DNA of 64,000 bases from Methanolacinia petrolearia DSM 11571 (lineage in GTDB: Archaea > Halobacteriota > Methanomicrobia > Methanomicrobiales > Methanomicrobiaceae), in NCBI RefSeq assembly GCF_000147875.1, contig NC_014507.1, positions 434,001 to 498,000 of the forward strand, in the 5' to 3' direction. The translations under genes were made by a program, and so were the position numbers. Of the stretch, positions 1,268-34,991 are shown one piece after another (position 1 is the stretch's first letter; every line of letters begins with the position of its first letter). Under the pieces are notes generated by a model, which had not been told where the DNA came from, ran no database searches, and was given only the letters and a program-made list of their open reading frames with translations.

Positions 1268-2029
1268 TTAATCTTTGATGAGTTTTGAGGATTCGTAATG
1301 CTTCAGGTCTGCTTCCAGCCCGAGCCCTTTTACATATTTCATAAGCTCATCGTGATCCCGTTCGTGATACATATGAGCCGAGACCGAGGTATGCGAGTAC
1401 CATCCGACATCTGCTTTGAGACGGTCCGCGATCATCTTCTGGAGATGGACGAGGGCGTACATGTTCGCCCCGAGTGCGGAGAGCATGTCGTTCGACCTGA
1501 AATCCACGTGCATATTGAGTCTCCCGTCGCGGACGAAGCACTGGATTCTCTGGAGGCACGGCGGATTGTCCGATTGATCGTCTTTCGGGGGAAACCAGGT
1601 GATTGCTTCGGCACGGCGTGAATTGGGCTCGGCTTTGAGTTTCTCTATCAGGTATTCCACCTGGTCGATCCCTTTCCCGTCGCCGTCTCCCCTGAACTCC
1701 GAATCCCCCACCGGATAATCGAAGAGCCGGTCGTGATACGTATATACGAACTCGTTCTCGGTCCCGTTCAGGAGATCGTTTACGTACTGCCTCATCGCCC
1801 CTTCGCCGAACATATTGAAAGGGCTAATCATGTAGTCCTCGAACGGATTTTTAACGTGAATATTCAGCGGCTCGGGAAGTTCTATAGTCTTTTCTCCGTC
1901 TTCTGTGACCAGATATTTCCCGTGCTTCAGGATGGTCTTGATAACCTCTTCATGTGCCTTGCCCAGTGAAAATGCACGTACGTTGAACACCTTAAAACCA
2001 TCTCCCTTTGATAAGAGTATTTTCGCCAA
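1268..2029 (-). CDS. thyA: Thymidylate synthase, methanogen type
   Basis: Makes dTMP from dUMP by reductive methylation; methanogens are thought to use tetrahydromethanopterin-linked one-carbon units. The 253-residue protein has the catalytic Cys158 in PPCLQRIQ, a downstream RSND motif (178-181) for the nucleotide and Asn/Tyr-rich substrate-site residues (GANMYALVHLQ, 187-197). The N-terminus differs from bacterial ThyA, as in the archaeal subfamily of about 220-250 residues. It ends one base before the DUF5714 gene region, so the two minus-strand genes are probably cotranscribed. Confidence 0.9.
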   Translation of the reverse strand: MAKILLSKGDGFKVFNVRAFSLGKAHEEVIKTILKHGKYLVTEDGEKTIELPEPLNIHVKNPFEDYMISPFNMFGEGAMRQYVNDLLNGTENEFVYTYHDRLFDYPVGDSEFRGDGDGKGIDQVEYLIEKLKAEPNSRRAEAITWFPPKDDQSDNPPCLQRIQCFVRDGRLNMHVDFRSNDMLSALGANMYALVHLQKMIADRLKADVGWYSHTSVSAHMYHERDHDELMKYVKGLGLEADLKHYESSKLIKD

Positions 2030-28878: not shown

Positions 28879-29160
28879 TTAGGGCTGTGTATAAACAGCT
28901 ATTGCATTATTTCCAAACGCAATATTACTTGCTGTAGTTATATTTTGAGTTAAGTCTACACCATTCCAGACAGAATATTCACTAATGTCTGTAGACATTT
29001 GGGTTAAATGTGCTTCTGCAACTTTTTCACCGTATTCATAAGTTACCAAATTTTCACTTCCACTATTATCATATGCACTGGCGGCCGGTACAAAAACAGC
29101 CCCGGCAAGTGCCAAAACTATCAGCAGGCTCAAAGCCTGCATACCTTTCTTAACTTTCAT
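28879..29160 (-). CDS. Small secreted protein behind leader copy 1
   Basis: From the ATG at 29160, which has GGAG seven bases upstream, the product is 93 residues: a signal peptide (LSLLIVLALAGAVFVPAASA) and a mature part of about 65 residues rich in Ser, Thr, Asn and Tyr. The ribosome-binding site lies inside the GTCTCC/GGAGAC hairpin of the conserved leader. No family is recognised; the size would fit a secreted peptide or small cell-surface protein. Confidence 0.75.
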   Translation of the reverse strand: MKVKKGMQALSLLIVLALAGAVFVPAASAYDNSGSENLVTYEYGEKVAEAHLTQMSTDISEYSVWNGVDLTQNITTASNIAFGNNAIAVYTQP

Positions 29161-29373
29161 TTTTTGTCTCCATTTTTTCATGCCCCCGGAGACAGGACTA
29201 TCAAAGGTTTCAATTAGTTTTTGAGCCTGGCTACATTATGCCCCGGGCACGCAGGGGTTAAGCCGTTCTTGTTCGGTCCGGGCAAAACCCCCTGCAACAT
29301 CTTTTAGGTGCTACATGGATGACTTTTTGTTTTGGGAAATAAATTGATTATGTCCAAATCGTCGAACTGTTCA
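29161..29373 (-). promoter_or_regulatory. Conserved promoter and structured leader, copy 1
   Basis: Read on the minus strand this holds the box GATTTGGACATAA (29360-29348), a TATA-like CAATTTATTTCC, then a GC-rich leader. Its stems are GCAGGGGTT (29251-29259) with AACCCCCTGC (29286-29295), an inner CCG...CGG hairpin, TGCCC-GGGGCA, and GTCTCC/GGAGAC (29166-29171 with 29188-29193), which encloses the ribosome-binding site. Copy 3 at 33475-33688 is nearly identical and copy 2 at 30263-30395 is partial. It looks like a translational control leader. Confidence 0.65.
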
Positions 29374-29572
29374 TTTCCAGTCGGAAATCTTTGATCCCAA
29401 ATCAGAATTCTGTAAAATTATCATTCACTCTTACTTCAGCATTAACTGACGAAACTAACTTGGGGAATTCCATTATGATATTGTCTTAATTTACTGGCCA
29501 AGAGACTAATTCTAACGTTTCAAAAATTTATTTTGAGAATTTAATTAAGCATAATGGTGATCTGTGTTTTAT

Positions 29573-30097
29573 TTATGGAAACCATATATCACTACTATTG
29601 AATGCAAAAACAGCAGTACCATTCCCATCGATAAGGCGGGTATAGTTTTCCAGTCGTTCCTTTCCATAAAGATCTCCTGGTATAACAACCTCAAATCTCT
29701 CAACAATTTCCTGCGTTTCATTGACATAGAAATAGACGTTAATGCCCCGGTAAACAACCCAAAGCGTTGGTCCGCAACTCAGGTTCCATCCTTTTGGTCT
29801 GGATGGCATAAAATCAATTACTCCTTTGATACCGCTCCCATGACTGAGCATTTCTGCCACATTTTTATCGCACAGGGCAGTCCGTGCTACAAAAGATGCA
29901 TTTGTACGAATCGATTCAGAGCCAAGGTAGGGGACAGTCGAAACATTAACCCCGGAGATCCATTCTTCGGAAAGATTACATTTGGTTGTGTTGTTTATGA
30001 CAGGCTGGTCTGGCCCTTTAATTTCCTGATCAATACAACATGCGGCATGTCCTATTAAAAGCAACATCAGAAGTAAAATAAAAAAAGAGATTTTCAT
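29573..30097 (-). CDS. Putative secreted lipoprotein
   Basis: From the ATG at 30097 the product is 174 residues, with a hydrophobic signal (FFILLLMLLLIGHAACC) that ends in a lipobox-like Cys. The mature part is rich in Asn, Ser and Thr with several Asn-x-Ser/Thr sites. In-frame TTG (30112) and GTG (30106) starts also exist. No family is recognised. It lies downstream of the partial leader copy 2, across a 54-codon ORF. Confidence 0.7.
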   Translation of the reverse strand: MKISFFILLLMLLLIGHAACCIDQEIKGPDQPVINNTTKCNLSEEWISGVNVSTVPYLGSESIRTNASFVARTALCDKNVAEMLSHGSGIKGVIDFMPSRPKGWNLSCGPTLWVVYRGINVYFYVNETQEIVERFEVVIPGDLYGKERLENYTRLIDGNGTAVFAFNSSDIWFP

Positions 30098-30108
30098 TAT
30101 TTTCACTT

Positions 30109-30273
30109 TCAATTGGCTGTTTTTAATTCTACATCAGTTCCGGATATGATGTTTACATCCAGCCCGCTCAGTAGTTGTTGCGCCATTGATCCATAATATT
30201 CACTAAATGACATTGTTACTGTACTGCCTCCATTTTTAAATACCATGTTATAGAACTCAGTATCCCCAGGCAT
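30109..30273 (-). pseudogene. 54-codon ORF, probable 3' remnant fused to repeat copy 2
   Basis: An open frame from an ATG inside the repeat (30273) reads MPGDTEFYNMVFKNGGSTVT and on to LDVNIISGTDVELKTAN. It ends just before the lipoprotein start. It has protein-like composition but neither a signal peptide nor a ribosome-binding site. The junction falls exactly where repeat copy 2 loses its downstream half, so it is probably the tail of a gene cut off by recombination. Confidence 0.4.
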
Positions 30274-30395
30274 GCAGGGGTTAAGCCGTTCTTGTTCGGT
30301 CCGGGCAAAACCCCCTGCAACATCTTTTAGATGCTACATGGATTACTTTTTGTTTTGGGAAATAAATTGATTATGTCCAAATCATCAAACTGTTT
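30263..30395 (-). repeat. Partial leader repeat, copy 2
   Basis: This copy keeps the GATTTGGACATAA box (30383-30371), the TATA-like stretch and the GCAGGGG...CCCCTGC stem nearly unchanged from copy 1, including identical inner hairpin sequence. It breaks off right after the stem and lacks the ribosome-binding-site hairpin. Confidence 0.8.
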
Positions 30396-30415
30396 GAAAA
30401 TAAAATATCTGAGAT

Positions 30416-31051
30416 TTAGTCATACAATCCCTCTGTATTTATGACTGAATAGGAAGGGTACAGGTAAAGGATAGCTGTATCGTTGTAAATCATAACTACT
30501 GTTGAATTTGAACTATTATTTTGTATATCAAAAACATACCACCATCCAGTCAGTTTGTCTTTTGCCTTATGATAACCCTCGGGAAGAGGACCGGAAATTG
30601 GTTCTGAGATCCATGTAATTGCATCGCAGTAACCCTTAGTGGCAGTCCTACTCTGTTCATTGACAACTATGTAAAATGAGAGAGCATCTTTCCTAAATTC
30701 CAGTTCCACAGATTTCCCGTCATTGCTATCCTCATTGTCATATTCCGAAACAGAAGCAATGATCCATCCGTTTTCAAGAAGTATCCCTGAACGCAGATCA
30801 TTCAGTGCAACCCCGAGAATAGTGCTTAGATTAGTGGAAATTGTTTCGGGATCATCCACCTTTAGCGCGGACAAATCAAGAGAAATCTGCGAACCGCCGT
30901 TATTGTAATAAAAAGTAACCGAACCTCTTTCGTTTGCCTGAAAATTATCGGGATTATCAGGAACCGGTCCTGCGAAGTAGAGACAGATTGCCATTACTAT
31001 AAGTAAAACTCCCAGTCCACCCAAAATACCAATTAATTGAGTTTTCTTCAA
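30416..31051 (-). CDS. Membrane-anchored protein of unknown function
   Basis: A 211-residue protein with a single N-terminal helix (LIGILGGLGVLLIVMAICLY) and an extracellular domain with predicted beta strands (SVTFYYNNGGSQISLDLSAL). No family is recognised. The FYYNNGG motif loosely recalls FKNGGSTVTM in the 54-codon remnant next door, so the two may be related. It is on the same strand as its cluster neighbours. Confidence 0.7.
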   Translation of the reverse strand: MKKTQLIGILGGLGVLLIVMAICLYFAGPVPDNPDNFQANERGSVTFYYNNGGSQISLDLSALKVDDPETISTNLSTILGVALNDLRSGILLENGWIIASVSEYDNEDSNDGKSVELEFRKDALSFYIVVNEQSRTATKGYCDAITWISEPISGPLPEGYHKAKDKLTGWWYVFDIQNNSSNSTVVMIYNDTAILYLYPSYSVINTEGLYD

Positions 31052-31126
31052 AGATTGACCACTCCTTTGACATTATAAATTTCATTTTCTGTGTTTTTTA
31101 AGATTAAAATTTTAATTAAGAGGAAA

Positions 31127-32179
31127 TTAAACCGCACTTACATTGAGGCCGATCCTGATACTGGGCTCGGACCAGGTCCATTGATTGAATTGCGTCGGCA
31201 CCCCCGGCGATGTTTCAAAGCGTTGATAAGGCAGAGGGATATAAACCGACATCAGTTCATGAACACCTTCTTCGGAAGGTACAACAATACTTGCCGGCAC
31301 TGAAATTTTTTCACCGGCGGAAAGAGAACCAAACCAGCACTTTTCTTTCATATCAGTTCTCAGAGGAACCTGTATATAATCAAGAAGAGTTATGACTGCA
31401 AAAGATACGGGATATTCTTTATCAGCTGCGAGGTTGATCCAGTAGTGCAGGACTTCTCCTGACCTAACATCTTCAGTAAACCATCCTTTAGAAGAACAGG
31501 GCTCCTTTGTAAGAATTATACCATCATTTATCGGATAATCAGAACCGCAATTTGATGCCGATAGTAACGAAAAGTCCGTATATTGAACTTCGGGGAGTTT
31601 ATCATCAAAAACAAACAGGTTCATTCTCTTACTACCTAGATAAGAAAAATCAGTCGACAACCTGAAAGATTTGTTTAACGAGTGCTGATCGGTTTTCAAC
31701 AGTATAAATATTTCAAAATCGTGGACCCCTTTTTCCAGTGGATCGATGGAAAACTTAACAAAACGTTCTTCAAACGGATTCAAACTGACTTTATGGAGAA
31801 CTCCTTTTTCACTTCCATCGCATGAAAAAGACGTCTGATTATAATCGACAAGGCAAAATATCAGAAAAGAATTGTTTTCAGCAAGCTGGTTGCTTATGAA
31901 AAGATAACCGTTAAAAGGTTCATTTTCCGAAAGTTCCTTTGAATAATGCAAAGAATGATCAGGCGTATGGACAGGGGCATCGTAAAGACCGATTCCAAAA
32001 CTTTCTCCCACTGCCCCCGGTTGATATGCAACAGATTCAGGATTTAATGCTCCGGAATTATTATCGACTATCCCGGTCATGGCAATTTGAGGAGAAGATT
32101 CAAAGACTACATGATAGAACGGGACACTTAAACATAGAAAGACTAAACAAAAGACAAATAAAAAAAAGGTTTTTCTCAC
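31127..32179 (-). CDS. Large secreted or membrane-anchored protein
   Basis: A 350-residue protein with an N-terminal hydrophobic helix (FFLFVFCLVFLCLSVPFYHV) and two or three beta-sandwich-like repeats; segments such as FNGYLFISNQLAENNSFLIF followed by KGVHDFEIFILLKTD look like tandem immunoglobulin-type domains. It resembles DUF1616-type surface proteins in style, but I cannot assign it. It is transcribed after the four-helix protein at 32190. Confidence 0.65.
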   Translation of the reverse strand: MRKTFFLFVFCLVFLCLSVPFYHVVFESSPQIAMTGIVDNNSGALNPESVAYQPGAVGESFGIGLYDAPVHTPDHSLHYSKELSENEPFNGYLFISNQLAENNSFLIFCLVDYNQTSFSCDGSEKGVLHKVSLNPFEERFVKFSIDPLEKGVHDFEIFILLKTDQHSLNKSFRLSTDFSYLGSKRMNLFVFDDKLPEVQYTDFSLLSASNCGSDYPINDGIILTKEPCSSKGWFTEDVRSGEVLHYWINLAADKEYPVSFAVITLLDYIQVPLRTDMKEKCWFGSLSAGEKISVPASIVVPSEEGVHELMSVYIPLPYQRFETSPGVPTQFNQWTWSEPSIRIGLNVSAV

Positions 32180-32189
32180 CCATTCACCT

Positions 32190-32627
32190 TCATGAAATGC
32201 CCGATATAAAAATTAAAAACCATATTACAGACAATATACCCGCTGCAATCAGGTGCAGTTTTTCCCTCCCTGAAGCCAGAAAACCAATAATCCCAAGACA
32301 GATCAACAATGCCAGATGGTATCCTGCAAATAAAAGTAAATAGCCTGAACTCAAAGGATTCTGAAAATTAACTAATAAAGAAATAAAAAGAATCAAAAAT
32401 GTATAAGATACGATTCCTGCAAGAGGAGAACGAAATCTATCACCTGTTTTATATCCATAGAAGAAAGCACCAACTGGATATAAGATAATTAAAATAATTC
32501 CAATTATCCCGGAATAAAATGAATTTTTCGAACTTAGAAAATAATATGCAAAAGAAAAAACAGCAAAAAAAGAAAGATATGATAAAAAAAGGGTGTTTTT
32601 TTTGTCAAAAAACTTCTGGCATCTCAT
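32190..32627 (-). CDS. Four-helix membrane protein
   Basis: A 145-residue protein with about four to five membrane helices (SYLSFFAVFSFAYYFL, GIIGIILIILYPVGAFFYGY, LLFAGYHLALLICLGIIGFL, LIAAGILSVIWFLIFI) and no visible motif. It sits between two secreted-protein genes with gaps of 10 and 7 bp, indicating one transcript from leader copy 3. Confidence 0.7.
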   Translation of the reverse strand: MRCQKFFDKKNTLFLSYLSFFAVFSFAYYFLSSKNSFYSGIIGIILIILYPVGAFFYGYKTGDRFRSPLAGIVSYTFLILFISLLVNFQNPLSSGYLLLFAGYHLALLICLGIIGFLASGREKLHLIAAGILSVIWFLIFISGIS

Positions 32628-32634
32628 CAGTTAT

Positions 32635-33474
32635 TCACCCATAAAATATTCTTGTACACATTCCATTATTATAAGGACTTGCTACATAATTGTTGAGAGA
32701 ATAATCATCCTCATAGACATGCCACATAACATCACCTGGCTGATCATAAAATCCTGCAACCTCCTCTTCTGCATTTTCAAATCCATCAGCTTCATGAGGG
32801 GCCCATGTGTCATGATGAGCTGCTCCTACAACATCCCCATCATTCATTTGCCATAATCTAATGTGCCAACCCCCGAAAACCCTTAAAGGATCGTCTGCGA
32901 GTCCATCATCTGCTTTCCACCCACTATCATAGATATAGTATGTGTCTTCAGCGATGACATCCCACCATCCTTCATTGAGAATTTCTGCTTTCACTGTATT
33001 GAGGTCGTTACTTTCCCAAGCGATGTTAATAGGTTCATCCAACTGATGATAAGTATCTCCTAATTTTTCATAAATCCATTGAGGATAATCATAGCTTTTC
33101 GATGAAACAGGCGGATCATTTTTCAATGTGAAAACTTCATATGAAGATTCCGTGGAAGTATAATGCTTACCTTCAACAAGATTGAACTTTTTTACATAAT
33201 CTGGATCAACCTTATAAGAATTCGTCTTCTCTAGTTGCTCCACATTAAACCTTTTTTTCAATTCTGAGCCGGAATAGACGTCTTTAACATATAGTGTCTC
33301 ATCACTGACATAATATTCAGTTGTATGTTCTACAAGAATTGCATGTTCTTTTTCCCATTCACTTACTATTCTGGGACTGGTTTTTTCTGCACTTACAGCC
33401 TGTACCAAGATTACACTTACTATCAGCGCTGTAAAAAGCAGGCTCAAAGGCCGCATTGTTTTTTCCATTTTCAT
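32635..33474 (-). CDS. Secreted 279-residue protein behind leader copy 3
   Basis: ATG at 33474 follows GGAG inside the leader hairpin. A signal peptide (LSLLFTALIVSVILVQAVSA) precedes a mature domain of about 255 residues rich in Tyr, Trp, Asp and Glu. The C-terminal part contains a His-rich VVGAAHHDTWAPHEADGF and ends DDYSLNNYVASP...CTRIFYG. The HHD and HE motifs could bind metal. No family is recognised. It heads an apparent operon with the two membrane proteins downstream. Confidence 0.75.
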   Translation of the reverse strand: MKMEKTMRPLSLLFTALIVSVILVQAVSAEKTSPRIVSEWEKEHAILVEHTTEYYVSDETLYVKDVYSGSELKKRFNVEQLEKTNSYKVDPDYVKKFNLVEGKHYTSTESSYEVFTLKNDPPVSSKSYDYPQWIYEKLGDTYHQLDEPINIAWESNDLNTVKAEILNEGWWDVIAEDTYYIYDSGWKADDGLADDPLRVFGGWHIRLWQMNDGDVVGAAHHDTWAPHEADGFENAEEEVAGFYDQPGDVMWHVYEDDYSLNNYVASPYNNGMCTRIFYG

Positions 33475-33688
33475 GTTTTTCGTCTCCATTTCTTTTTCAT
33501 GCCCCCGGAGACAGGATCGTCAAAGGTTTCAAGTAGTTTTTGAGCCCAACTACATTATGCCCCCGGGCACGCAGGGATTTGGCCGTTCTTGATCGGTCCG
33601 GGCAAAACCCCCTGCAACATCTTTTGGATGCTACATGGATGACTTTTCGTTTTACGCCATATATTGATTATGTCCAAATCATGCAACT
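33475..33688 (-). promoter_or_regulatory. Conserved promoter and structured leader, copy 3
   Basis: Aligned with copy 1, most differences fall outside the pairing segments, or stems are kept with fewer pairs (for example GCAGGG/CCCTGC). The ribosome-binding-site hairpin GTCTCC (33482-33487) with GGAGAC (33507-33512) is unchanged although the loop is three bases longer. The promoter box GATTTGGACATAA is at 33680-33668. Confidence 0.65.
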
Positions 33689-33719
33689 AACCCCTTTCAG
33701 TTTGACGATTTGGACATAA
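33668..33719. promoter_or_regulatory. Inverted pair of GATTTGGACATAA boxes
   Basis: TTATGTCCAAATC (33668-33680) and GATTTGGACATAA (33707-33719) form a perfect 13-base inverted repeat. Each half lies just upstream of a TATA-like element for one of two divergent genes. It is a likely activator site shared by both directions. Confidence 0.7.
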
Positions 33720-33776: not shown

Positions 33777-34235
33777 ACGTTTAAACAGATTGCAATTGCT
33801 GCATTAATCATACTTTGCTGTGTATCTTTTGCATCCGGCGCGGCTATTGAAGAGAAATCAGATCAGGATCTCATAGGCGAATTCGGGGACTACATTATAT
33901 CGCCTGCAAGAGATTCCTGCGTAAACCCCGGTCCGAAATACGTCTTCGACACGATTAAACAGGGCGAGACTAACTGGCACACAAAATATGTCGGTTCCCA
34001 GATAACCGTACTCAACGTCGACCTCAACTGGGCCGATCCCACGGACTCACTGAGGCTGAAGATCTACACTCCCGACAACCAGTGTCTCGGGGTATTTTTT
34101 GACGATGACGACGGAAGACCTGATGACGGGAGGATCAACATTGATATCTGCAATTCCGGCGGCATTGCACAAGGGACCTGGTACTATGAAGTCTACGGAT
34201 ACAGTATTGAAGGGATCGAAGATTATTATATATAA
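33777..34235 (+). CDS. Secreted beta-sandwich protein with an apparent ACG start
   Basis: An uninterrupted frame of 152 codons begins at ACG 33777, nine bases after AGGAG; no ATG, GTG or TTG precedes it in frame before a stop. The product has a signal peptide (AIAALIILCCVSFASGA) and a domain (VLNVDLNWADPTDSLRLKIY, GTWYYEVYGYSIEG) resembling PPC-like secreted beta-sandwich modules. Either ACG is used as a start or a single T-to-C change has weakened the gene. It is 21 bp upstream of the regulator ATG. Confidence 0.7.
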   Translation, partial: TFKQIAIAALIILCCVSFASGAAIEEKSDQDLIGEFGDYIISPARDSCVNPGPKYVFDTIKQGETNWHTKYVGSQITVLNVDLNWADPTDSLRLKIYTPDNQCLGVFFDDDDGRPDDGRINIDICNSGGIAQGTWYYEVYGYSIEGIEDYYI

Positions 34236-34256
34236 TCTCATATAGAATTGTCATCT

Positions 34257-34991
34257 ATGCAGAATGTATCAAAACTCATTCTATTCTTTTACATTCTTTT
34301 AATTTTCATGGTCACCGGAGTGCAGGCTGCGGAAGGGGATTATATTATAAAACCACACGAAGACAATCAGGGCCTCATCGATAAGGGACTTATTGACTCA
34401 GGCGGTGCCGATTCTACAATTACATTCTGGGAGCTTCCATTGTTGATTAAGATCTCATTTATCGCCGGAATTCTGGCGGCAATTATCGGAACAATAAAAA
34501 TTATCCCAATAATTCAGGGCAGGCTTGAAGATCTTTTTGACAACCAGAACAGGAATGACATATTTGACTTTATATCTGAAAATCCGGGTTGCTCAATTGC
34601 AGACATCTCAAATAATCTCGGTATAAACAGGGGTTCGACGAAATATCATATTGGGAAACTGATCTCCGATAGTAAAGTTACATTAGTGAAATCCGGGAAA
34701 TTTATACGGATTTTCGAGAATTCCGGAATTTTTGATGAACAGCAAAAAGTACTTGCATCACACCTGAGAAATGAGACCGGGAGAAAACTTCTGTTAAGTA
34801 TTATGGAAAATCCTGGTATTACGAATATGGATCTCGCAGAGAAGCATGATATGAATAAGAGTACAATACACTGGCCCCTTAAAAAATTTCAAAAATCCGG
34901 CATTGTTCAATCTTCCCCTGAAGGAAAATATAAGAAATATTCCCTGAATCCCACTTTTGAAAATGATCTGAAAGATTACTTCTCCAAATAA
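34257..34991 (+). CDS. Membrane-anchored double winged-helix regulator
   Basis: From the ATG at 34257 (TTG alternative at 34248) the 244-residue protein has a signal-like segment (LILFFYILLIFMVTGVQAAE), a short external loop, a second helix (IKISFIAGILAAIIGTIKII) and two cytoplasmic winged helices (residues about 98-150, CSIADISNNLGINRGSTKYH; and about 170-235, NMDLAEKHDMNKSTIHWPLK). This methanogen architecture senses something outside and binds DNA inside. It follows a secreted protein and is the natural candidate to act at the GATTTGGACATAA boxes. Confidence 0.85.
   Translation: MQNVSKLILFFYILLIFMVTGVQAAEGDYIIKPHEDNQGLIDKGLIDSGGADSTITFWELPLLIKISFIAGILAAIIGTIKIIPIIQGRLEDLFDNQNRNDIFDFISENPGCSIADISNNLGINRGSTKYHIGKLISDSKVTLVKSGKFIRIFENSGIFDEQQKVLASHLRNETGRKLLLSIMENPGITNMDLAEKHDMNKSTIHWPLKKFQKSGIVQSSPEGKYKKYSLNPTFENDLKDYFSK

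What the first reader, a model, noticed from the sequence alone, without database searches (positions are those of the whole stretch)
29161..33688. Three copies of a structured leader, two of them hiding the ribosome-binding site of secreted-protein genes
Copies at 29161-29373, 30263-30395 (partial) and 33475-33688 share promoter box, TATA region and a GC-rich leader in otherwise AT-rich DNA. In copies 1 and 3 the last hairpin pairs GTCTCC with GGAGAC, and the second arm is the GGAG that serves the start codon 7-8 nt downstream. Loop lengths differ (16 against 19) while the arms are identical. In the upstream stem GCAGGGG...CCCCTGC, copy 3 keeps GCAGGG/CCCTGC. I recognise no described archaeal riboswitch here. 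It could be a riboswitch, an RNA thermometer or a protein-bound leader for secreted-protein synthesis.
Basis: partly seen in the sequence, partly recalled or inferred. Interest (0 to 1): 0.85.

Follow-up and report, generated by a model that had tools for sequence, protein, structure and literature searches.

The report
Archaeal mRNA switch for secreted proteins
Methane-making archaea carry a conserved folded RNA at the start of many genes for exported enzymes and toxin-like peptides; it can fold in two exclusive ways, one leaving the ribosome's landing site open and one hiding it, so it looks like an unrecognised on/off switch for what these microbes secrete.

Summary
The element lies on the minus strand. 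The genome has five intact copies and three decayed ones; window copy 2 is a deletion scar. Covariance models found it in 65 of 232 genomes of the order, often many per genome, and outside the order in Methanosarcina-type genomes. It nearly always directly precedes signal-peptide ORFs: metallo-, cysteine- and serine-type proteases, a protease inhibitor, halocin-C8-like peptides. Pairing covaries strongly. Anatomy: a three-way junction (P0/P1/P2), then a conserved strand CCCGGRGGCA (anchor) that mimics the Shine-Dalgarno (SD) sequence. An anti-SD arm can pair either with the anchor (P4, SD free, about 7 kcal/mol better) or with the SD (P5, SD hidden).

No Rfam family covers the leader. One distant relative is known experimentally: the 5'UTR of Methanosarcina mazei MM2442, start mapped by RACE, bound by antisense sRNA162. 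The sRNA's 5' end is the exact complement of the anchor, which suggests how P5 could be triggered. A membrane regulator and a small secreted protein (MM2441/MM2440 in M. mazei) sit beside a leader in many genomes.

Shown here: family, structure, targets, exclusive pairing. Inferred: translational control, its sign, its signal.

The parts
33475..33643 (-). Copy 3: intact leader, predicted 5' end near 33643 to the start codon ATG 33474-33472
   Evidence: R1 and R2 covariance hits; 5' end about 25 nt after the TATA-like box, same place as the RACE-mapped start of the Methanosarcina mazei relative
33634..33637 (-). Copy 3 P0 5' strand CAUG (pairs with CGUG 33571-33568)
   Evidence: structure given; P0 covaries in A8/A9
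33615..33633 (-). Copy 3 P1 hairpin UAGCAUC-CAAAA-GAUGUUG
   Evidence: MFE; all six P1 pairs of the R2-based alignments change on both sides somewhere
33572..33614 (-). Copy 3 P2 hairpin CAGGG..CCCUG
   Evidence: MFE; covariation
33558..33566 (-). Copy 3 anchor (anti-anti-SD), 5' arm of P4, CCGGGGGCA
   Evidence: most conserved block of the family
33505..33513 (-). Copy 3 anti-SD arm UGUCUCCGG: pairs with the anchor (P4) or, through GUCUCC 33512-33507, with the SD (P5)
33482..33487 (-). Copy 3 SD strand GGAGAC, 3' arm of P5
33438..33454 (-). Copy 3 hairpin inside the signal-peptide codons, GCGGCCTTTGAGCCTGC
   Evidence: more stable than synonymous recodings (mean z -2.1 over 42 copies)
32635..33474 (-). 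Copy 3 gene: 279-aa secreted protein, MKMEKTMRPLSLLFTALIVSVILVQAVSA..., no family match
   Evidence: 89% identical relative behind a leader in G017
33668..33680 (-). Operator-like box GATTTGGACATAA upstream of the copy 3 promoter; inverted mate at 33707-33719 (+) faces the divergent pair
   Evidence: 467668-467680 and 467707-467719; I5
29161..29323 (-). Copy 1: intact leader; SD strand GGAGAC 29171-29166, anti-SD GUCUCC 29193-29188; start codon ATG 29160-29158
28879..29160 (-). Copy 1 gene: 93-aa secreted protein MKVKKGMQALSLLIVLALAGAVFVPAASA...
   Evidence: orthologue of the same length behind a leader in the sister genome
29124..29140 (-). Copy 1 hairpin in the signal-peptide codons, GCAGGCTTTGAGCCTGC
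   Evidence: z -3.8
29348..29360 (-). Box GATTTGGACATAA of copy 1
   Evidence: 463348-463360
30265..30346 (-). Copy 2: promoter plus P0/P1/P2 only; P4/P5, SD and start codon deleted
30112..30264 (-). Tail of the gene that copy 2 once controlled, 152/153 nt identical to the 3' end of the 369-aa gene of the sister genome
33777..34235 (+). 'div': small secreted protein, divergent from copy 3, homologue in position of M. mazei MM2440; start codon uncertain (ACG where relatives have ATG, GTG or TTG)
34248..34991 (+). 'hth': protein with signal/TM segments and two winged HTH_24 domains, homologue in position of M. mazei MM2441

Best explanation
The element is the transcribed 5' leader of genes for exported enzymes and peptides, and it acts in cis as a two-state translational switch. 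Its 5' half folds into a three-way junction (P0, P1, P2). The next strand, the anchor CCCGGRGGCA, imitates the Shine-Dalgarno sequence. About 45 nt downstream lies an anti-SD arm (GUCUCC or GCCUCC) that can pair with the anchor (P4, long stem, SD open) or with the SD itself (P5, SD closed). P4 is transcribed first and is more stable, so the default is probably ON. Anything that captures the anchor releases the arm, P5 closes and translation stops. In Methanosarcina the capturing agent is plausibly the antisense RNA sRNA162, whose 5' end is the exact complement of the anchor. In Methanolacinia, Methanogenium and Methanoculleus relatives it is unknown: a ligand or protein acting on the P0-P2 junction, or an antisense RNA not yet seen. 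A box upstream of the promoter and a divergent membrane winged-HTH regulator probably add transcriptional control of the same regulon. Shown here: the family, its structure, the two exclusive pairings, the gene association. Inferred: that it controls translation, the default state, the trigger.
For: Covariation: in A9 (50 copies, five families) 233 double-changed cells against 75 +- 9 in shuffles, score 0.324 against 0.156, slid versions at most 0.083; the same trend in A8, A4 and A12. Strand: G.U pairs on the leader strand outnumber A.C 201:48 (A4) and 102:21 (A12). P4: 85 of 93 copies pair at least 8 of 10 anchor bases when the SD is kept free; P4 is better than P5 by a median 7.7 kcal/mol; P4 segment mean z -3.5. 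P5: 92 of 93 copies, mean 7.2 bp; 89% strong against 15% in controls; the pair outside GGAG covaries, C-G 58 and T-A 19. In Methanosarcina-type copies the arm changes with both partners (TGCCTCG/CGAGGTA, TTTGCCTCT/AGAGGCAAA, CTCCTG/CAGGAG). Targets: nearly every intact copy directly precedes a signal-peptide ORF, even where the signal peptide differs. Transcript: RACE of MM2442 places its start 184 nt upstream of the annotated start codon, which on L188 is the 5' edge of the junction; sRNA162 binds this leader by gel shift and footprint (PMC3510493).
Against: No expression or probing data for the window's organism. The main P4 stem is almost invariant, so it is supported by complementarity and by covarying inner stems rather than by its own double changes. 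The anchor mimics the SD, so P5 follows partly from P4 plus an SD. A few copies (e.g. L086_14606, L092, L084) have shifted arms. R2 does not detect the M. mazei-like L188 leader itself and finds L194 only at E=0.015, so that homology rests on gene order, motif order and L189 (E=2e-4). In M. mazei, sRNA162 overexpression lowered MM2442 transcript only slightly (PMC3510493).
Confidence: 0.74

Rival explanations
1. Ligand riboswitch: the P0/P1/P2 junction with its conserved loop (GAUCARGAAYGG-like) is an aptamer whose ligand shifts P4/P5. This is one possible trigger of the best explanation.
For: Junction plus exclusive platform is a typical riboswitch layout; P0 ends directly where P4 begins; many copies per genome with unrelated targets in one functional class.
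Against: The junction helices vary greatly in sequence and length between families (P1 GUAGCAUC against GGGUACC), so few nucleotides are conserved in it; the most conserved blocks are the anchor and UACUUGAA in P4. The target genes share no metabolite.
Confidence: 0.3
2. Antisense-RNA control everywhere: the leader is chiefly the target of an RNA made from the opposite strand, as with sRNA162 and MM2442.
For: RF02792 overlaps leaders in Methanosarcina-type loci in the same geometry; its 5' end is the complement of the anchor; gel shift and footprint in M. mazei (PMC3510493). The conserved UACUUGAA block sits where the antisense TATA box would lie.
Against: RF02792 has no match in the window's genome nor in two other Methanomicrobiales genomes. 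UACUUGAA is a poor TATA box outside Methanosarcina. G.U counts favour the leader strand as the structured one.
Confidence: 0.25
3. Protein-bound leader: a regulator (ribosomal, secretion-related or part of the divergent HTH system) binds the RNA and chooses the state.
For: One functional class of targets (exported proteins); conserved single-stranded UACUUGAA; conserved hairpin in the signal-peptide codons.
Against: No candidate RNA-binding protein is tied to the leader; HTH_24 domains suggest DNA binding.
Confidence: 0.2
4. RNA thermometer: melting of the SD hairpin P5 opens the SD.
For: P5 covers the SD in 92 of 93 copies.
Against: P5 is not the preferred fold; a competing stem frees the SD by about 7 kcal/mol. 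A thermometer needs no three-way junction and no anti-anti-SD strand.
Confidence: 0.06
5. No RNA function: a duplicated promoter-signal-peptide cassette kept similar by recent copying.
For: Copies in one genome are alike and extend into the signal-peptide codons.
Against: Compensatory changes across families and even orders, with very different primary sequence and different signal peptides.
Confidence: 0.03

Closest known systems
5'UTR of Methanosarcina mazei MM2442 with antisense sRNA162 (Rfam RF02792) and the MM2440-MM2441 operon (PMC3510493)
   Same: Same neighbourhood (div/MM2440, hth/MM2441, leader-controlled exported gene/MM2442), same order of P2, anchor, P4 arm and SD; the mapped transcription start lies at the 5' edge of the junction; binding of sRNA162 nt 1-65 to this leader shown by gel shift and footprint.
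   Different: RF02792 describes the opposite strand and is limited to Methanosarcina; the leader was not recognised as a structured family, the paper saw no RBS for MM2442 (its annotated start lies 42 nt downstream of a TTG with an SD), and no P4/P5 switch was described.
Translational riboswitches with an anti-SD / anti-anti-SD platform (general knowledge)
   Same: Works like them: 5' domain followed by two mutually exclusive helices, one of which hides the SD.
   Different: No ligand known, no match to any Rfam riboswitch family, very variable junction helices.
[quoted passage not shown]
   Same: Cis-acting leaders, present in archaea too.
   Different: No covariance match; targets here are secreted proteins.

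Membership tests
Rfam sRNA162 (RF02792) | Antisense small RNA of about 190 nt matching the family model | tested here: not met
   No RF02792 match in the window's genome nor in the window; the leader is the opposite strand of such RNAs
5'UTR of MM2442 type leader | Leader next to MM2440/MM2441-like genes and before an exported protein | tested here: met
   div within 800 bp of a leader in 22 of 52 genomes held, nearly always followed by hth; same genes on L188 and L189
Any known Rfam riboswitch or leader family | Covariance match at or near the gathering score | tested here: not met
   only a tRNA, pyrrolysine elements and sRNA162 on the opposite strand, plus chance miRNA/snoRNA scores far below cut-off
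Translational riboswitch | Element is part of the mRNA 5'UTR | tested here: inconclusive
   Position and TATA-like box fit; RACE in the M. mazei relative fits; not measured in this organism
Translational riboswitch | Mutually exclusive helices that free or hide the SD | tested here: met
   (computed, not probed)
Translational riboswitch | Specific ligand bound by the 5' domain | not testable with these tools
   Needs in-line probing or similar
RNA thermometer | SD hairpin is the ground state and melts in the growth range | tested here: not met
   P4, which frees the SD, is preferred in most copies; mean SD accessibility 0.72 at 37 C
Halocin C8-like peptides (target genes) | Match to TIGR04449 over its cut-off | tested here: inconclusive
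   L087 protein matches the domain over its full length, 20.9 bits against a cut-off of 24

The most novel reading that the evidence does not exclude
A new archaeal riboswitch-like RNA class, shared by Methanomicrobiales and Methanosarcinales, that senses a cue through its three-way junction and sets translation of a whole secreted arsenal (proteases, inhibitor, halocin-like peptides), coupled to a membrane HTH regulator and, in Methanosarcina, overridden by an antisense RNA that captures the anti-anti-SD strand.
Probability: 0.35. Interest if true: 0.93.

Novelty: new variant of a known kind. Interest (0 to 1): 0.86.

Why it matters
Few cis-regulatory RNA classes are known in archaea, and what methanogens secrete is little understood. 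This family gives a single RNA handle on a set of exported proteases and halocin-like peptides across two orders, including Methanosarcina, where genetic tools exist. It also offers a testable explanation for a result left open in 2012: why sRNA162 binds the 5'UTR of MM2442. Its 5' end covers exactly the strand that would otherwise keep the SD open.

Tried and rejected
RNAalifold on a plain MAFFT alignment of 29 copies found only 11 pairs because the P2 arms are misaligned by one base between clades; structural models replaced it. A tight hairpin UGCC-CGGR-GGCA at the anchor, which would break both P0 and P4, was tested as a third state: its outer pair is kept in 79 of 93 (shuffled 72.7), but several copies lack it, so it is left as a weak possibility. 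The anchor pattern scan of 84,980 species gave 27 stretches: L127, filed under Bacillota, carries two strong leader copies and looks like a misbinned Methanoculleus contig; L134 and L152 look like chance matches, without leader or signal-peptide gene. L073 and L165 are chance model hits. The two other genomic copies of the box lie inside ORFs. Structure prediction of div gave a beta sandwich of modest confidence (pLDDT 68.5) with no significant PDB match; that of the 369-aa protein was too poor to use.
Full report
CHECK OF THE OBSERVATION. The three copies exist at the stated places, on the minus strand. Arms, loop lengths (16 and 19 nt) and the upstream stem are as described. A search of the whole genome (2,843,290 bases, the size I remember for Methanolacinia petrolearia DSM 11571; from memory, not tested) gave further copies at 384-392 kb, and a profile search added one more remnant: in all five intact leaders and three decayed ones. 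Window copy 2 is a scar. After the P2 region its sequence jumps into the last 51 codons of a gene; those 153 nt are 152/153 identical to the 3' end of a 369-aa gene that stands behind an intact leader in the sister genome G015. The GGAG of copy 2 is therefore codon sequence, not an SD.

A FAMILY, NOT A LOCAL REPEAT. DNA similarity finds the leader in 11 of 28 genomes of the family. A covariance model from eight Methanolacinia-like copies (R1) found homologues in other families. A second model, R2, was built only from sequences of other families. R2 hits 65 of 232 genomes of the order (the class holds the same genomes) and in turn re-finds the window copies (33487-33643 E=2.5e-6, 29158-29323 E=2e-4). 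Many genomes have ten or more copies. At phylum level R2 also hits 17 genomes outside the order. Of 16 such hits that I read, 15 lie directly before an ORF with a clear signal peptide; the sixteenth (L176) leads into a short 31-codon ORF. An exact-pattern scan of 84,980 species returned 27 stretches, all in methanogen records except two filed under bacteria, of which one is a misbinned contig and one a chance match. Contig lengths tie handles to names: G008 to Methanogenium cariaci, and G104, G106 and G089 to Methanoculleus. G348, G426 and G534 exceed the cut-off of the Methanosarcina family RF02792.

ANATOMY. About 25 nt after a TATA-like box the leader begins. P0 (CAYG/CRUG) closes a three-way junction with P1 and P2. 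Directly after P0 comes the anchor CCCGGRGGCA, then about 45 nt with the conserved block UACUUGAA, then the anti-SD arm, a loop of 9-20 nt, the SD, and the start codon 7-10 nt further. The minimum-energy folds of Methanolacinia and Methanogenium-type leaders show P1, P2 and the hairpin P4 between anchor and arm, so that the arm is not on the SD.

COVARIATION. Order-wide alignment A9: 29 of 41 pairs have changes on both sides; 233 double-changed cells against 75 +- 9 in shuffles; covariation score 0.324 against 0.156 +- 0.006; slid structures score at most 0.083. A8: 28 pairs, 137 cells against 43 +- 7. A4: 19 pairs, 67 against 24 +- 6. Methanosarcina-type A12: 19 pairs, 41 against 16 +- 3. All six P1 pairs change on both sides. 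These alignments were fitted to the models, which favours them; the slide controls, and the fact that models from one family find the other families, argue that this is not the cause. G.U pairs on the leader strand outnumber A.C mismatches, which would be G.U on the other strand, by 201:48 (A4), 346:154 (A8), 228:117 (A9) and 102:21 (A12), so the structured strand is the mRNA. The main P4 stem itself hardly varies; its inner stems do.

THE TWO STATES. In 93 usable copies, P4 pairs at least 8 of 10 anchor bases in 85; when P4 is forbidden, the SD is fully paired in 77 and three-quarters paired in 10; P4 is better by a median 7.7 kcal/mol; mean SD accessibility is 0.72. The SD finds an upstream arm in 92 of 93, mean 7.2 bp; a strong SD hairpin is seen in 89% of copies against 15-16% of controls. 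Just outside the fixed GGAG the P5 pair covaries (C-G 58, T-A 19; no shuffle reaches the observed pairing). In the Methanosarcina-type copies arm and SD change together: TGCCTCG/CGAGGTA, TTTGCCTCT/AGAGGCAAA, CTCCTG/CAGGAG. In the copies of L177 and L184 the arm reads CTCG, the anchor CCTGAGGCA and the SD CGAGG or TGAGG, so both pairings were kept.

TARGETS. Nearly every intact copy is followed within a few bases by an ORF with a signal peptide. In Methanomicrobiaceae and Methanoculleus relatives the peptides are alike (MKxKxGMRALSxLLxxxLVSxxxVPAVSA); in f5, f6 and Methanosarcina-type genomes they differ, so the leader rather than the peptide is the constant part. Behind the signal peptide the proteins are unrelated: reprolysin-like metalloproteases, C39-like peptidases, a chagasin-type inhibitor, proteins with HExxH or GDSGG motifs, and cysteine-rich halocin-C8-like proteins (one full-length match just under the cut-off). 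The protein of copy 3 (279 aa) has no family match. The codons for RALSLL/RALSVL form a hairpin (GCGGGC-TTTGA-GCCTGC or GAGCAC-TTTCT-GTGCTC) that is more stable than synonymous recodings (mean z -2.1, n=42; related sequences, so not independent).

REGULATOR NEIGHBOURS. The box GATTYGGWCAYAA occurs 11 times in the genome, 9 at the two leader clusters and 2 inside ORFs. Divergent from copy 3 lie a small secreted protein (div) and a protein with two HTH_24 domains behind hydrophobic segments (hth). Such a pair, or div alone, starts within 800 bp of a leader in 22 of 52 genomes of which I hold mostly a few kb, and it also occurs in a Methanosarcina-type genome (L185).

LINK TO PUBLISHED WORK. Rfam RF02792 (sRNA162) matches the strand opposite to leaders in L185. 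The 2012 study of M. mazei (PMC3510493) reports the operon MM2440-MM2441 (unknown protein and ArsR-type regulator), sRNA162 masking the MM2441 RBS, and binding of sRNA162 nt 1-65 to the 5'UTR of MM2442, whose start was mapped by RACE 184 nt upstream of the annotated start codon with a 65-nt overlap. On L188 (G348, RF02792 185.9 bits) div and hth lie at 39-311 and 382-1056, sRNA162 at 1501-1690 (-), and both published distances put the MM2442 start at 1625-1626 if the annotated start codon is the ATG at 1809; this is the 5' edge of the junction. The same locus shows P2 (GCAGGAUUCAG..CUGAACCCUGC), the anchor GCCCGAAGGC, the arm UUUCUUGCCUCUU and the SD AAGAGGUG before a TTG that opens a 258-aa ORF with a signal peptide, resembling the halocin-C8-like protein of L098 by eye; this would explain why no RBS was seen for MM2442. 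The first ten bases of the sRNA162 consensus, GCCUUCGGGC, are the complement of the anchor. R2 scores L189 at E=2e-4 and L194 at 0.015 but misses L188, so this homology rests mainly on synteny and motif order.

MECHANISM. I take the leader to be a two-state translational switch with P4 as default ON and P5 as OFF, and capture of the anchor as the event that throws it. The capture by sRNA162 is an inference from complementarity plus the published footprint; the trigger in the window's organism is unknown. Thermometer behaviour is unlikely because the hidden-SD state is not the ground state.

NOVELTY. No Rfam family describes the leader. The paper searches I made found no description of it; many journals are not held. 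Because the kind of device (SD-sequestering leader) is known and one distant copy has been touched experimentally, I call it a new variant of a known kind.

Noticed in passing
window 33777-33779: The div gene has ACG where relatives have ATG, GTG or TTG; the sister species shares it, so a non-standard start codon or weak translation is possible.
   Followed up: partly
window 34248-34991: Membrane-anchored protein with two HTH_24 domains next to leaders in many genomes, position homologue of M. mazei MM2441; candidate reader of the box GATTTGGACATAA.
   Followed up: partly
L188 1767: M. mazei MM2442-like gene probably starts at a TTG 42 nt upstream of the published start, with an SD that lies in P5.
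   Followed up: partly
leader P4 loop, e.g. window 33528-33535: The conserved block UACUUGAA lies where the TATA box of an antisense RNA would be; in Methanosarcina (UAUUUAAG) it looks like one, elsewhere not.
   Followed up: no
L127: Contig filed under a Bacillota MAG carries two strong leader copies and is probably a misbinned Methanoculleus contig.
   Followed up: partly
L087 2598-3326, L098 3368-4126, L182 3722-4342: Halocin-C8-like cysteine-rich exported proteins in methanogens behind this leader.
   Followed up: partly
window 29124-29140 and 33438-33454: Hairpin in the signal-peptide codons kept by synonymous choice, in two different sequence versions between clades.
   Followed up: yes
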